Source: Xanthobacter flavus (GTDB taxonomy: Bacteria > Pseudomonadota > Alphaproteobacteria > Rhizobiales > Xanthobacteraceae). From it: DNA of 64,000 bases. The translations under genes were made by a program, and so were the position numbers. The notes below the pieces were generated by a model, which was given only the letters and a program-made list of their open reading frames with translations, made no database searches and had not been told where the DNA came from. The stretch is taken from contig NZ_JAGGML010000001.1 of the NCBI RefSeq assembly GCF_017875275.1, positions 4,795,001-4,859,000 on the forward strand, read 5' to 3'. Of this stretch, positions 28,061 to 37,839 are shown one piece after another; the stretch's first letter is position 1, and each line of letters starts with the position of its first letter.

Positions 28061-28800
28061 CCCGTCCCGTCCCGCGCATCGACCTGTTCGACGTGCGCCC
28101 GGAGGACGAGCGCGCCTACGCCTTCGCGCGCGACCTGAGGGCCATCGAGGCGCTTCTGTTCACTTCGCCGTTGCCGGTGGACGCCAAGGCGATGAAGCCG
28201 CATTTGTCCGCCGACGCCGACATCGCCGCGCTGATGGAGGCCCTGACCGCGGATTACGCTCGGCGCGGCGTCAACATCGTGAAGGCCGCCGGTGGCTGGA
28301 TGCTGCGCACGGCGCCGGACCTCGCCCGCGTGGTCGCCGGCCCCGTGCCGGAGGCGCGCAAGCTCTCGCGCGCGGCCATCGAGGTTCTCGCCATCGTCGC
28401 CTACCACCAGCCGGTCACCCGCGCGGAGATCGAGGAGATTCGCGGCGTCTCCACCTCCAAGGGCACGCTGGACGTGCTGCTGGAGACGGGGTGGGTGCGC
28501 CTGCGCGGCCGCCGCAAGGCGCCGGGGCGGCCGGTGACCTACGGCACGACGCCGGCCTTCCTTGTGCAGTTCGGCCTCGATGCGGTGCAGGATCTGCCGG
28601 GCCTCGACGAGCTGAAGGGCGCCGGCCTTATCGACGGGCGAATCCCTGCCGGTTTCGCCATTCCCCTGCCGTCCGACGATCCGGGCCTGCGCGAGGACGA
28701 AGAGGCTCTGGAGCCGGACATGCTGGATTTCCACCTCTCTCCGCCGCCGGAGGAGGAGTTGGAAGGCGCCTCCGAGCCGGACGATGATGGCGACGCATGA
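28057..28800 (+). CDS. scpB: Segregation and condensation protein B
   Basis: 247 residues with two winged-helix domains: ALLFTSPLPVDAKAM at the start of the first, IEVLAIVAYHQPVTRAEIE in the second, and RGRRKAPGRPVTYGTT. The C-terminal tail of about 50 residues is very acidic. It pairs with ScpA in the condensin complex. The final 17 bases overlap the start of the following ABC ATPase gene, which is unusual for this locus. Confidence 0.94.
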   Translation: MTRPVPRIDLFDVRPEDERAYAFARDLRAIEALLFTSPLPVDAKAMKPHLSADADIAALMEALTADYARRGVNIVKAAGGWMLRTAPDLARVVAGPVPEARKLSRAAIEVLAIVAYHQPVTRAEIEEIRGVSTSKGTLDVLLETGWVRLRGRRKAPGRPVTYGTTPAFLVQFGLDAVQDLPGLDELKGAGLIDGRIPAGFAIPLPSDDPGLREDEEALEPDMLDFHLSPPPEEELEGASEPDDDGDA

Positions 28801-29908
28801 GGAGGCTGTTCTGGCTGACGAGATCGAGACGCTGGGGATGAGCCGCAGCCGCACCCCCGCCGCCTTCGCCAAGGGCCTGTCCTTCGAGGACGTGCGGCTC
28901 GCCTATGGCGATGTCGCCGCCGTGCGCGGCGTGAGTCTGTCGGTGGAGCCGGGCGAGGTGCTGTGCCTGCTCGGCCAGTCGGGTTGCGGCAAGACCTCGC
29001 TCCTGCGCCTCGCGGCGGGTATCGAGCAGCCGGACGGCGGGCGCATTCTCATCGACGGTGCTGTGGTGGCGGGGCAGGGGGTCTTCGTGCCGCCGGAGCG
29101 GCGTGGCGTCGGGCTGGTGTTCCAGGACTACGCCCTGTTCCCCCACCTCACCAACCTCGAGAACGTGATGTTCGGCCTCAACGGCCTCAAGCGCGCGGAG
29201 GCGATGCGGGAGGCGCGCCTCGCGCTGGCGCGGGTGGACCTCGCCGACCTCGCCGATGTCTATCCCCACGAGCTTTCCGGGGGCCAGCAGCAGCGGGTGG
29301 CGCTGGCCCGCGCCATGGCGCCCCGACCGGGCATCCTGCTCCTCGACGAGCCCTTCTCCGGCCTCGACCGGCGTCTGCGCGACCAGGTGCGCGCGGACAC
29401 CCTCGCGGTGCTGCGCGACGCGAAGGCGACGGTCATCATCGTCACCCACGATCCCGAGGAGGCGATGCGCCTTGCCGATCGCATCGCCCTGCTGCGCCAT
29501 GGCAAGCTGGTGCAACTCGGCCCGCCGGCGGAACTCTACCGGCGCCCGGCCGACATCGGCGTGGCGCGCTTCTTCTGCGAGCTGAACGAGATCGAGGCCA
29601 ATGTGGTCGCCGGCGTGGCGGATACGCCCCTCGGCCGGTTCGCGGCTCCGCAGGTGCCCGATGGTCCAGCCATCGTCGCCATCCGCCCGCAGGGCCTGGC
29701 GCTGTCCGCGGCCGGGCAGGGCGTGCCGGGGCGGCTGCTGGAGCGTCGCTTTCTGGGCGAGCTTGATCTCGTGGAAGTGATCGTGGACGCGCTGGAGCGG
29801 CCATTGGTGCTGCGCCTGCGGGACGCGGGAAACGTGAAAAAAGGCGACGAGGTCGGGCTTCTGGTCGATCCCGGTGAAGTCCTTGTTTTCGCCGCGGGCG
29901 GAGCCTAG
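28784..29908 (+). CDS. ABC transporter ATP-binding protein (FbpC/PotA-like), orphan
   Basis: 374 residues. The ATPase core has Walker A GQSGCGKTS (64-72), Q-loop FQDYALFPHLTN (from 113), signature LSGGQQQR (164-171), Walker B ILLLDEP (184-190) and H-loop VTHDPEEAM. A C-terminal TOBE-type regulatory domain (about 275-374) contains VAIRPQGLALS. This layout is typical of FbpC-like ferric iron or sulfate/spermidine importers, but no permease or binding-protein gene is adjacent. It overlaps scpB by 17 bp and sits between scpAB and tatABC. The substrate cannot be assigned. Confidence 0.88.
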   Translation: MMATHEEAVLADEIETLGMSRSRTPAAFAKGLSFEDVRLAYGDVAAVRGVSLSVEPGEVLCLLGQSGCGKTSLLRLAAGIEQPDGGRILIDGAVVAGQGVFVPPERRGVGLVFQDYALFPHLTNLENVMFGLNGLKRAEAMREARLALARVDLADLADVYPHELSGGQQQRVALARAMAPRPGILLLDEPFSGLDRRLRDQVRADTLAVLRDAKATVIIVTHDPEEAMRLADRIALLRHGKLVQLGPPAELYRRPADIGVARFFCELNEIEANVVAGVADTPLGRFAAPQVPDGPAIVAIRPQGLALSAAGQGVPGRLLERRFLGELDLVEVIVDALERPLVLRLRDAGNVKKGDEVGLLVDPGEVLVFAAGGA

Positions 29909-31697: not shown

Positions 31698-31792
31698 CCG
31701 TCATGCCCCGGCTTGTCCGGGGCATCCACCGCGCCGCCGGGCGCCGGTCTACGCGGAAGCGTGGATCCCCCGGACAAGCCGGGGGATGACGG
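31698..31792. repeat. Palindromic intergenic element, copy 1 (upstream of serS)
   Basis: Two 32-bp arms (31698-31729 and 31761-31792) are inverted complements with two mismatches. Each arm also contains its own hairpin (ATGCCCCGG-CTTGT-CCGGGGCAT and ATCCCCCGG-ACAAG-CCGGGGGAT). A closely related copy in the same orientation lies just after serS (33417-33524), and a half-element lies at 39143-39171. This has the look of a dispersed non-coding element found in rhizobial intergenic regions; it may also act as the tatC terminator. Confidence 0.85.
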
Positions 31793-31847
31793 TGGTGAGG
31801 GCGCGAAGTGCTGCCTTAATGGCCCGAGGGCCACGGCGGAGCTTGCC

Positions 31848-33377
31848 ATGCACGACATCAAATGGATCCGCGAGGAACCGGCCGGCCTCATCGACGCGCT
31901 AGCCCGCCGCGGCAATCACTCTGACGAGGCCAAGGCGGCGGCGGAAGCCCTCGTCGCCAAGCTCCTCGACCTCGACACCCGTCGCCGCGAGACTCTGACC
32001 AAGCTCGAAACCCTGCTCGCCCGCCGCAACGCCGCCTCCAAGGAGATCGGCGCCGCCAAGGCGAAGAAGGACGAGGCCACAGCTTCGGCCCTCATGGCCG
32101 AGGTGGCCAAGCTGAAGGAAGACGTGCCGGCGCTGGAGCAAGAGGCCAAGCGCATCGAGGCCGAGCTGAACGGCGAACTCGCCGCCATCCCCAACGCCCC
32201 CCTCGCCGAGGTGCCGGAGGGCGCCGACGAGCACGACAACATTGAAAAGAGCCGCTTCGGCGCGCCCCGCACCTACAGCTTCACCCCGAAGCAGCATTTC
32301 GAGGTGGGCGAAGCCCTCGGCCAGATGGATTTCGAAACCGCCGCCAAGCTCTCCGGCGCGCGCTTCGTGGTGAACAAGGGCCCGCTGGCGCGGCTGGAGC
32401 GGGCGCTGGGGCAGTTCTTCCTCGATGTGCATACGGGGGAGCACGGGTACATGGAGGTCAATCCGCCGCTGCTGGTGCGGGATGACGCCATGTTTGGGAC
32501 GGCGCAGCTGCCGAAGTTTCGGGAAGATCAGTTCCAGACAAAAAAAGGGGCCACGATCAATGACGTGAGCCTCGTTATGCAGAACGCAATAAAGCAGTTC
32601 GCCGCGAACGCGACGTTTGAACGCTCAAGAGATGGCCGACTGGTCGATACACCGGACGTGCGCGCGGCAGCGCTTCAATTCATGCGGAACGCGGTTGACG
32701 AATGGATGGGCGGGGCGTCAGTGCTAGCAGATCGCGATCCAAACGAGCCGATCGAGCACGATATTCCTTTTTGGCTCATCCCCACCGCCGAAGTCCCCCT
32801 GACCAACCTCGTGCGCGAGTCCATCCTCTCCGAGGAAGAGCTTCCCCTGCGCCTCACCGCCTGCACCCCCTGCTTCCGGGCGGAGGCCGGTGCGGCGGGG
32901 CGAGATACGCGGGGGATGATCCGCCAGCATCAGTTCACCAAGGTGGAGCTGGTTTCCATCACCACGCCGGAGAAGTCGGTCGAGGAGCATGAGCGCATGC
33001 TCGCCTGCGCCGAGGCGGTGCTGAAGAAGCTGGACCTCGCCTATCGGGTGGTCACGCTCTGCACCGGCGACATGGGCTTCGCCTCGCAGAAGACCTACGA
33101 CATCGAGGTCTGGCTGCCGGGGCAGAACGCCTATCGCGAAATCTCCTCCTGCTCGGTGTGCGGCGATTTCCAGGCGCGGCGCATGAATGCCCGCTACCGT
33201 CCGGCGGAAGGGAAAGGCCCGCGCTACGTCCACACGCTCAACGGCTCGGGTGTGGCGGTCGGCCGCGCCCTCGTCGCGGTGCTGGAGACGTACCAGCAGG
33301 AGAACGGCTCCGTGGCCGTGCCGGACGCGCTGCTGCCCTATATGGGCGGGCTGAAGTTGATCGAGAAGCTGAAGTAG
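31848..33377 (+). CDS. serS: Seryl-tRNA synthetase with an internal insertion
   Basis: 509 residues against about 425-430 for typical bacterial SerRS. The N-terminal coiled-coil arm spans about 1-110. Class II motifs are [20 protein letters not shown] (motif 2 region) and [20 protein letters not shown] (motif 3, about 467-486), with the serine-site [10 protein letters not shown]. Between [15 protein letters not shown] and WLIPTAEV, where homologs have only a few residues, are about 75 extra residues (about 232-307; nt 32541-32768). By my count the insert is about 57% GC, against about 66% in flanking coding sequence, and it uses ATA, AGA, CTA and CGA codons. It starts at a run of seven A. The frame stays open, so the enzyme is probably functional. 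The start was chosen at the conserved [11 protein letters not shown]. Confidence 0.95.
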
Positions 33378-33416: not shown

Positions 33417-33524
33417 TTGTCATGCCCCGGCTCGTCCGGGGCATCCACCCCGCCGCCGGAGCGATCTCGGCGGACCGGCGCCCAGCCCAACCGTGGATCC
33501 CCCGGACGAGCCGGGGGATGACGG
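33417..33524. repeat. Palindromic intergenic element, copy 2 (downstream of serS)
   Basis: Same structure and orientation as copy 1: arms 33417-33448 and 33493-33524, each with an internal hairpin around CTCGT or ACGAG. The spacer between the arms differs in length and sequence. The two copies therefore bracket serS as direct repeats. Confidence 0.85.
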
Positions 33525-33580
33525 CCGGGAGGCGACGGAAGCAGTTACTGCCGGCCGTGGGCCGGACAAAGGGACATCCG

Positions 33581-36753: not shown

Positions 36754-37839
36754 ATGCCTTTGATCGACTACATCCCGGCGCAGACCAACATCCACTTCAT
36801 GCGCCTGCGGCACTGGACGTTCCCGCTCTCCGCGGCGCTGTCCATCGTGGCCTGCCTGCTGTTCGCTATCCACGGCTTCAACCTCGGCATCGACTTCCGG
36901 GGCGGCACGCTCATCGAGGCCCAGACCAGCCAGCAGCAGGCCGACATCGGCGCGCTGCGCGAGCACCTGACCGATCTCGACGTGGGAGACGTGCAGATCC
37001 AGGAGTTCGGCTCGCCGCGCGACGTGCTGATCCGCATCGGCGCCTTCGGCACCACCGATGAGGCCCAGCAGGCCATTCTCGCCAAGGTGAACGGCGTGCT
37101 CGGCTCCGATTACACGGTCCGCCGCGTGGAGACGGTCGGCCCGAGCGTGTCCGGCGAACTGGTGCGCCAGTCGATTCTCGCGCTGGTGCTCGGTGCTGTG
37201 GCGGTGCTCGCCTATCTGTGGTTCCGCTTCGAGTGGCAGTTCGCCGTCGGCGCCATCGTGACGACGCTGCACGACATCTTCGTCACGCTGATGATCTATT
37301 CGGCGTTCGGCATCGACTTCGACCTGACGTCCATTGCCGCCATCCTCACCATCATGGGCTATTCGCTCAACGACACGGTGGTGGTGTACGACCGTATCCG
37401 CGAGATGCTGCGCCGCTACAAGAAGCTGCCACTGCCGGAGCTGCTCGACATCGCGGTCAACGCCACCTTCTCGCGCACGATCATCGTCTCCACCACCACG
37501 TTCTTCGCCACTCTCGCCCTCTATTTCTTCGGCGGCGAGGTGCTGCGCGGCTTCTCGCTGGCGATGACGGTGGGCGTGGTGATCGGCACCTATTCCACCA
37601 TCTTCGTCGCGGCCCCCATCCTCATCCATCTCGGCCTGCGCGCCTCCACGGTGAGCCTTCCCGCCAAGGAAGCCGATCCCGAGGTGAAGGAGCTGGACGA
37701 CCTGGTGAAGATGGAGGCGAAGGACGCCGCGGCCAGCGTTCCGCCTGAGGCAACGCCCGCAACCGGCGTTTCTTCCGCCAAGGGCAAGAATGGCAAGCCG
37801 GGCGGCAAGGCCGGCCCCGCCCGTCCGGCCAAGGCCTGA
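36754..37839 (+). CDS. secF: Protein translocase subunit SecF
   Basis: 361 residues, six membrane helices. The first periplasmic loop begins with LGIDFRGGTLIEAQ. The conserved GYSLNDTVVVYDRIRE carries the key Asp, and ARSIIVS-like TRTIIVSTTTFFATL follows. The C-terminal tail of about 60 residues is Lys/Gly/Pro-rich and longer than in E. coli. It partners SecD. The following small gene begins eight bases after its stop. Confidence 0.97.
   Translation: MPLIDYIPAQTNIHFMRLRHWTFPLSAALSIVACLLFAIHGFNLGIDFRGGTLIEAQTSQQQADIGALREHLTDLDVGDVQIQEFGSPRDVLIRIGAFGTTDEAQQAILAKVNGVLGSDYTVRRVETVGPSVSGELVRQSILALVLGAVAVLAYLWFRFEWQFAVGAIVTTLHDIFVTLMIYSAFGIDFDLTSIAAILTIMGYSLNDTVVVYDRIREMLRRYKKLPLPELLDIAVNATFSRTIIVSTTTFFATLALYFFGGEVLRGFSLAMTVGVVIGTYSTIFVAAPILIHLGLRASTVSLPAKEADPEVKELDDLVKMEAKDAAASVPPEATPATGVSSAKGKNGKPGGKAGPARPAKA

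What the first reader, a model, noticed from the sequence alone, without database searches (positions are those of the whole stretch)
32541..32768. Seryl-tRNA synthetase carries an extra ~75-residue segment of foreign-looking composition in its catalytic core
Seen: SerRS is 509 residues instead of about 430. The surplus lies between FREDQFQ and WLIPTAEV, in the hairpin just before the serine-binding TAE loop. The insert is about 57% GC by my count against about 66% in flanking coding sequence, uses codons rare here (ATA, AGA, CTA, CGA, ACA) and begins at an A7 run. It is exactly in frame. Inference: a captured mini-domain that could alter serine selection, tRNA binding or regulation. I cannot name a homolog of the insert.
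Basis: partly seen in the sequence, partly recalled or inferred. Interest (0 to 1): 0.75.

Follow-up and report, generated by a model that had tools for sequence, protein, structure and literature searches.

The report
Hypervariable swappable domain in seryl-tRNA synthetase
An essential enzyme that charges tRNA with serine carries, at one fixed spot, an extra small domain that is often completely different even between closely related species of this bacterial family, as if the domains were being swapped in and out under pressure to be different.

Summary
SerRS (window 31848-33377, 509 aa) has a 79-codon stretch (32535-32771) where insert-free relatives have about 6 codons. It is one instance of a larger pattern. 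In 197 distinct alphaproteobacterial serS genes (not a random sample), the same slot, between the DQF and WLIPTAEV strands, holds 5 to 97 residues. 118 genes have at least 30. Those 118 inserts fall into 78 sequence-unrelated families, 59 seen once. Close relatives with 92-96% identical flanking DNA carry unrelated inserts, while ThrRS-like, ProRS-like and ten neighbouring reading frames compared show no such break between them. Some families recur in distant genera. For the three families searched for in whole genomes, all 13 strong hits lie in serS. Inserts are GC-poor (mean 53% against 64% in flanks), almost cysteine-free (4 of 4787 residues) and under purifying selection in close pairs. 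The slot lies near the catalytically negligible insertion II of human SerRS. I read it as an exchangeable accessory-domain slot kept diverse by selection, most likely because something polymorphic binds or attacks SerRS. The hypervariability is shown; the antagonist is inferred. Seven searches of the held paper library listed no report of it.

The parts
31848..33377 (+). serS, bacterial-type seryl-tRNA synthetase, 509 aa
   Evidence: NCBIfam TIGR00414 484.9 bits against cut-off 301.65; Pfam PF02403 and PF00587
32535..32771 (+). hypervariable slot: the 79-codon insert of this species, no known relative
   Evidence: comparison with relatives; no match at E 0.05 in Pfam, PHROGs, PADLOC or NCBIfam (two weak Pfam matches at E 0.099 and 0.12); none in plasmids, phages or viral contigs; in 391 family and 397 order genomes only itself plus five hits at E 0.001-0.007 outside serS
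32526..32534 (+). left border of the slot, codons for Asp-Gln-Phe
   Evidence: Gln at the middle position in 116 of 118 serS with slots of 30 aa or more and in 15 of 45 with slots up to 8 aa (not significant on independent pairs)
32772..32795 (+). right border of the slot, start of WLIPTAEV with the TAE motif (serine-binding by recall)
   Evidence: the same 17 bases TGGCTCATCCCCACCGC in 11 of 13 genus members

Best explanation
SerRS of these alphaproteobacteria has one fixed slot, probably the tip of the beta-hairpin between DQF and WLIPTAEV, that holds an interchangeable accessory domain of about 30-100 residues. Shown: the segment reads as coding in frame, is wholly different between close relatives while the gene around it stays 92-96% identical, belongs to a very large pool of unrelated families, is shared sporadically between distant hosts, gave strong hits only in serS for the three families searched for, and is conserved in close pairs that share it. 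Inferred: cassettes move between serS genes by recombination through the conserved borders; they leave aminoacylation intact, as insertion II of human SerRS at about the same place does; and diversity is kept by diversifying or frequency-dependent selection because a polymorphic antagonist (a phage takeover protein, or a toxin or bacteriocin acting on SerRS) recognises this surface, so that a rare domain shields the enzyme or hides it.
For: Pairs of serS with core identity of at least 92% and both slots of 30 aa or more: 5 share an insert family, 58 do not (pairs overlap). Window, L010 and L011: flanks 92-96% DNA identity; the three 60-base bins wholly inside the slot 27-49%. Control: against G001 and G009 the lowest internal 25-residue window of SerRS is 4% identical, with 68 and 69 windows under 40%; ThrRS-like, ProRS-like and ten neighbouring reading frames have lowest windows of 52-96% and no window under 40%. 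78 families, 59 singletons; profile-profile comparison of all 3003 pairs of families puts two above 50% probability. Chao1 about 220 families. At least 111 changes of insert state on a FastTree core tree; the families of 8 and 7 members need 8 and 7 changes. All 13 strong hits (E below 1e-10) of three families lie in serS: 1 of 240 class genomes, 7 of 149 and 5 of 198 family genomes. dN/dS 0.03-0.42 in the 11 pairs with insert identity of at least 65% among the 20 pairs printed. GC lower than flanks in 107 of 118; GC1/2/3 0.62/0.41/0.56. Cys 4 of 4787 residues in 78 representatives, 0.1% against 1.7% in their cores. [quoted passage not shown]
Against: No antagonist or partner was identified, and within-species polymorphism could not be examined (one genome per species). 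No structure was obtained. Purifying selection and Cys depletion would also follow from a do-no-harm constraint on folding. The other nine printed same-family pairs have dN/dS 0.41-1.08. Helical periodicity is no stronger than in flanks. Evidence that flanks travel with inserts is weak: left-flank synonymous divergence is raised near the slot (17 of 27 pairs, p 0.02), not on the right (13 of 27, p 0.95); shared-family pairs are slightly more alike only within 15-30 bases. Many lineages do without a long insert. Ten weak hits of the three families (E 0.0007-0.05) are not in serS. In more distant relatives three of the ten neighbouring frames also have windows under 40%, mostly toward their ends.
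Confidence: 0.42

Rival explanations
1. Permissive slot, nearly neutral turnover: a hairpin tip that tolerates any soluble in-frame segment, where foreign DNA is caught now and then and swapped by recombination, with selection only against harmful sequences.
For: Inserts are foreign in GC3 and mostly orphan; 116 of 118 inserted genes have Gln at the left border, which might be a permissive residue; helical periodicity no stronger than in flanks (12 of 78 representatives at p 0.05 against 21 of 78 flank controls); most same-family pairs beyond 65% identity have dN/dS above 0.5.
Against: Inserts are long and conserved in close pairs, turnover outpaces divergence of the gene, and strong hits of three families were only in serS. 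Neutral capture predicts random sources, erosion and similar slots in other genes; none was seen between the closest genomes in ThrRS-like, ProRS-like or ten neighbouring frames.
Confidence: 0.27
2. DNA-level selection: a homing endonuclease or other selfish nuclease cuts the empty serS site, and any in-frame insertion that breaks the site is saved; the protein domain itself does little.
For: Sharp, fixed borders in conserved DNA; one site; foreign DNA.
Against: Does not explain replacement of one insert by another, conservation of the protein in close pairs, lack of Cys, or lineages with stable short slots. No such nuclease was sought.
Confidence: 0.12
3. Each insert is a species-specific functional or docking domain that tunes SerRS (tRNA binding, regulation, partner proteins).
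For: Position close to the TAE motif; low dN/dS in close pairs of one family; insertion II of human SerRS contributes to DNA binding (PMC10817482, passages).
Against: Close relatives with near-identical genes around the slot carry unrelated inserts; conserved tuning would not be replaced so often.
Confidence: 0.14
4. Assembly or annotation artefact.
For: A7 run at the left edge.
Against: 118 distinct serS genes from many assemblies show in-frame inserts at the same place.
Confidence: 0.01

Closest known systems
Insertion II of human and other higher eukaryote cytosolic SerRS (G254-N261)
   Same: Extra segment in the catalytic domain near the active site, close to the corresponding place: human chains align to query residue 309 at residue 267.
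   Different: Eight residues, a lineage feature; here up to 97 residues, 78 unrelated families, exchanged between species.
Rickettsia palindromic elements (in-frame insertions in coding genes; recalled)
   Same: In-frame acquired segments tolerated inside housekeeping proteins.
   Different: Those are repeated palindromic families in many genes; the window insert is single copy with no inverted repeat, and three other families gave strong hits in one gene only.
Swappable specificity or immunity domains (type I restriction HsdS target domains, polymorphic toxin immunity; recalled)
   Same: Conserved scaffold with exchangeable, highly diverse domains.
   Different: The scaffold here is an essential tRNA synthetase and no partner is known.
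Inteins in essential genes (recalled)
   Same: Foreign in-frame segment in a conserved site of an essential enzyme.
   Different: 79 residues, no intein-type match in Pfam or NCBIfam, first residue Gln; no sign of splicing.

Membership tests
Bacterial-type SerRS (TIGR00414) | Score above the curated cut-off, N-terminal tRNA-binding arm and class II core | tested here: met
   484.9 bits against 301.65; PF02403 and PF00587
SerRS insertion II | Location just before the TAE strand | tested here: inconclusive
   Human chains align to query residue 309 at residue 267; insertion II is 254-261, so it lies within about 13 residues upstream. Sequence only, the stretch itself was not aligned, no structure
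SerRS insertion II | Sequence homology | tested here: not met
   PDB search with the insert gives no SerRS; only hit E 0.078, a uteroglobin-peptide fusion
Rickettsia palindromic element type | Dispersed copies in the genome | tested here: not met
   Single match in own genome
Rickettsia palindromic element type | Palindromic structure | tested here: not met
   No inverted repeat of 10 bases or more; RNA folding z-score 0.83
Intein | Hint domain and junction residues | tested here: not met
   No Hint family among matches; starts with Gln
Diversity-generating retroelement variable region | Template repeat nearly identical to the variable region | tested here: not met
   No second copy in the genome; reverse transcriptase not sought
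VbhA-type antitoxin (insert family of L037) | Match above Pfam gathering score | tested here: inconclusive
   5 of 7 members match, best E 0.00031, its bit score not shown; the two members shown score 17.5 and 14.4 bits against cut-off 25.9 and match only the last 23-24 model positions
Tsi2-type antitoxin (one unidentified insert) | Match above NCBIfam cut-off | tested here: inconclusive
   1 of 78 representatives, E 0.00029; not among the ten scanned singly

The most novel reading that the evidence does not exclude
A hypervariable compatibility or immunity slot inside an essential translation enzyme: alphaproteobacteria exchange hundreds of unrelated small domains in SerRS to escape, or to recognise, polymorphic proteins that act on SerRS, a previously unrecognised arena of bacterial conflict centred on serine charging.
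Probability: 0.35. Interest if true: 0.95.

Novelty: categorically new. Interest (0 to 1): 0.85.

Why it matters
Aminoacyl-tRNA synthetases are textbook conserved housekeeping enzymes. A slot in one of them whose content is often unrelated between close species, with at least 78 observed families, implies an unknown selective force (or an unknown insertion process) acting on translation in a large group of soil and symbiotic bacteria, and gives a natural library of domains tolerated next to a class II active site. It would also make serS a treacherous phylogenetic marker in this clade if the slot is included.

Tried and rejected
Mobile-element scar or palindromic element: one match in the genome, no direct or inverted repeat of 10 bases or more around the slot, no Rfam match at gathering score; shorter target duplications were not excluded. 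RNA structure: z-score 0.83. Source in phage or plasmid DNA: no match for the window insert in phages, plasmids or viral contigs; no viral relative of the L037 family. Partner gene beside serS: the neighbours, tatC-like and surE-like by eye, are conserved in the relatives compared; no systematic search for a partner. Antitoxin origin: VbhA and Tsi2 resemblances are weak. With 78 members, about 4 chance families at E up to 0.05 are expected per library; 9, 14, 5 and 14 were listed for Pfam, PHROGs, PADLOC and NCBIfam, so much is noise. The weak hits of the L037 family in L220 and L221 look by eye like short coiled-coil proteins of another family. Gln at the left border as a driver: not significant on independent pairs. 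GC-skew flip as a sign of break repair: strong only in the window's genus, not pursued. Phage-encoded SerRS: kept as a lead only. An ungapped core-identity count was replaced by an aligned one. Two first controls proved useless: the Pfam core searched starts downstream of the slot, and SerRS itself aligned in one piece; a first repair required conserved flanks too close to a 79-residue slot and took a wrong ThrRS frame. One search is the control I rely on; ThrRS-like and ProRS-like are my names, from the family and sizes.

Full report
What is there. The window lies in a 5.35 Mb single-contig genome. serS is 31848-33377 on the plus strand, 509 codons, and is an ordinary bacterial SerRS by family models. 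Between the strands ending DQF and starting WLIPTAEV it has 79 codons (32535-32771). Insert-free alphaproteobacteria such as Rhizobium leguminosarum have 6. The stretch has GC 0.56 against 0.64 and 0.68 in the neighbouring 300 bases and one match, itself, in the genome.

The slot is hypervariable. A search of 61 relatives with the whole protein found SerRS in 59; in the window's family the match usually broke in two at or near this place. Reading the genes showed different in-frame segments from species to species. I enlarged the set with 198 family genomes (185 with a match), 80 named loci from GTDB genomes and 80 stretches picked from the listed matches. The sample is not random. Of the fetched loci, 207 could be parsed with a fixed border pattern. 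Not parsed and dropped were L030, L074, L078, L083, L095, L109, L133 and L134; six of these have slots of 6-22 residues by looser patterns. L136-L138 are not serS. Removing duplicates left 197. Slot lengths: up to 9 residues in 46, 10-29 in 33, 30 or more in 118 (median 57.5, maximum 97).

Unrelated inserts in near-identical genes. Clustering of the 118 inserts of 30 residues or more gave 78 families, 59 with one member. Profile-profile comparison of all 3003 pairs of families raised two pairs above 50% probability, so the families are not obvious branches of a few old ones. Pairs of genes with at least 92% core identity and both slots long share a family in 5 cases and differ in 58 (pairs overlap). 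The window's nearest relatives in the set, L010 (G001) and L011 (G009), have 92-96% identical flanking DNA, while the three bins wholly inside the slot are 27-49% identical, in my judgement about what aligning unrelated DNA gives. On a FastTree core tree at least 111 changes of insert are needed for 79 states (single gene, branch support not weighed).

Control. Against G001 and G009, SerRS falls to 4% identity in its lowest internal 25-residue window, with 68 and 69 such windows under 40%. A ThrRS-like and a ProRS-like protein (92-96% lowest window) and ten neighbouring reading frames (52-96%) have no window under 40%. Against six more distant relatives, three of the ten neighbouring frames do have such windows, up to 24 of them against 68-74 for SerRS. 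So, within what was compared, serS stands alone; the rest of the genome was not scanned. Two earlier controls could not have shown the effect and are set aside.

Horizontal recurrence. Families with several members are scattered: the two largest, of 8 and 7 members, need 8 and 7 changes on the tree. Members can have 56-65% identical inserts on cores only 74-76% identical, with up to 106-119 of 197 genes closer by core to one member but carrying another insert (L053-L087, L036-L068, L037-L197). A family seen mainly in Hyphomicrobiales was found in the SerRS of a 1.5 Mb genome of another family of the class (G633). All 13 strong hits of three families in whole genomes are in serS. Ten weak hits (E 0.0007-0.05) are not in serS and I take them for chance. 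So the pool appears to circulate among serS genes.

Protein nature. The GC of the inserts by codon position (0.62, 0.41, 0.56) shows the dip at position 2 seen in the flanks (0.67, 0.42, 0.83), a coding pattern in this frame with a foreign third position; GC is lower than in flanks in 107 of 118, and 21 have host-like GC, as expected of older acquisitions. Among the 20 same-family pairs with unsaturated insert divergence that one search printed, the 11 with at least 65% insert identity have dN/dS of 0.03-0.42; the other nine have 0.41-1.08. Three further pairs of at least 65% identity were beyond the divergence limit and not printed. Cysteine is nearly absent, 4 of 4787 residues against 1.7% in the cores, a compositional constraint whose cause is unknown. 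Helical periodicity is not stronger than in flank controls.

Breadth. In 140 genomes of the phylum searched with an insert-free SerRS, matches clearly split at this place were seen in the window's genome and in G603, G675, G732 and G477, all of the same order or class; the listing was cut. Listed SerRS matches outside the class were unbroken and at most about 17 codons longer than the query span, apart from fragments at contig ends (G761, G772); G723, G730, G737 and G745 showed only weak matches.

What the insert itself is. The window's insert has no match at E 0.05 in Pfam, PHROGs, PADLOC or NCBIfam (two Pfam matches at 0.099 and 0.12), none in plasmids, phages or viral contigs, one meaningless PDB hit, and in 391 family and 397 order genomes only itself plus five hits at E 0.001-0.007 outside serS. 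Profiles of three other families find no convincing solved structure; their best hits are E 0.041, 0.12 and 0.0083. One family resembles the C-terminal end of VbhA antitoxins in 5 of 7 members, below the cut-off where scores were shown, and one unidentified insert resembles Tsi2 antitoxins. These are leads.

How it may work. The human enzyme has its small insertion II close to the corresponding place, near the active site but of negligible importance for aminoacylation (PMC10817482, passages read). The site is therefore plausibly a surface hairpin where a domain can sit without stopping catalysis. Replacement rather than drift, recurrence across hosts and conservation in close pairs are the marks of loci under diversifying selection. 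I therefore favour a shield or identity domain against a polymorphic SerRS-directed antagonist, with recombination through the conserved borders as the means of exchange. Flank signatures of such recombination are weak, so the mechanism of exchange is open. A permissive, nearly neutral slot is the main rival.

Novelty. Seven searches of the held open-access library touched this question. I saw listings, the starts of abstracts, and passages of one review. None of the listed titles and abstract starts reports such a slot in SerRS. Subscription papers and preprints are not held, so this is not proof of novelty. Structure prediction was tried and was not available.

Noticed in passing
window 31700-31800 and 33418-33525: serS is flanked on both sides by a copy of a palindromic interspersed element with core CCCCGGACNAGCCGGGG; these are the only cores found in the window with up to 2 mismatches, and the genome has 88 exact core sites. 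G009 shows three cores near serS, one relative a single distant one, six others none in 20 kb.
   Followed up: partly
window 32390-32880: In the window's genus, fourfold sites just left of the slot end in G (0.96 of G+C in the nearest ten codons) and just right in C (0.26 G), a flip that is weaker in the whole set.
   Followed up: partly
L263, phage record ON529855.1: Seven Brevundimonas phage records match SerRS; the one opened, a 353 kb Dolichocephalovirinae phage, encodes its own seryl-tRNA synthetase next to a GcrA-like regulator, with a match span of insert-free length.
   Followed up: partly
G180 (L038, L139) and G016 (two contigs): Two serS genes with different slots in one assembly; in G180 the cores are only 83% identical, so contamination or a second gene rather than alleles.
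   Followed up: partly
L060, L065, L077, L115 (Bradyrhizobium): These four Bradyrhizobium genes share one conserved 21-residue slot, so the slot seems frozen there; L074, also titled Bradyrhizobium, has a related 20-residue one.
   Followed up: no
L262, NZ_CP148399.1: An E. coli 'plasmid' record holds the genes ftsK-lolA-rarA-serS-dmsABC, which look like a chromosomal segment.
   Followed up: no
L053/L008/L087 insert family: The C-terminal half has a pattern like the wing and last helix of winged-helix regulators; the best PDB hits, at E 0.12-0.92, are PadR-like, F93 and MarR proteins. Not significant.
   Followed up: partly
window 28652-29905 and 36754-37836: Two other frames near serS also have short stretches of very low identity toward one end in more distant relatives.
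   Followed up: no
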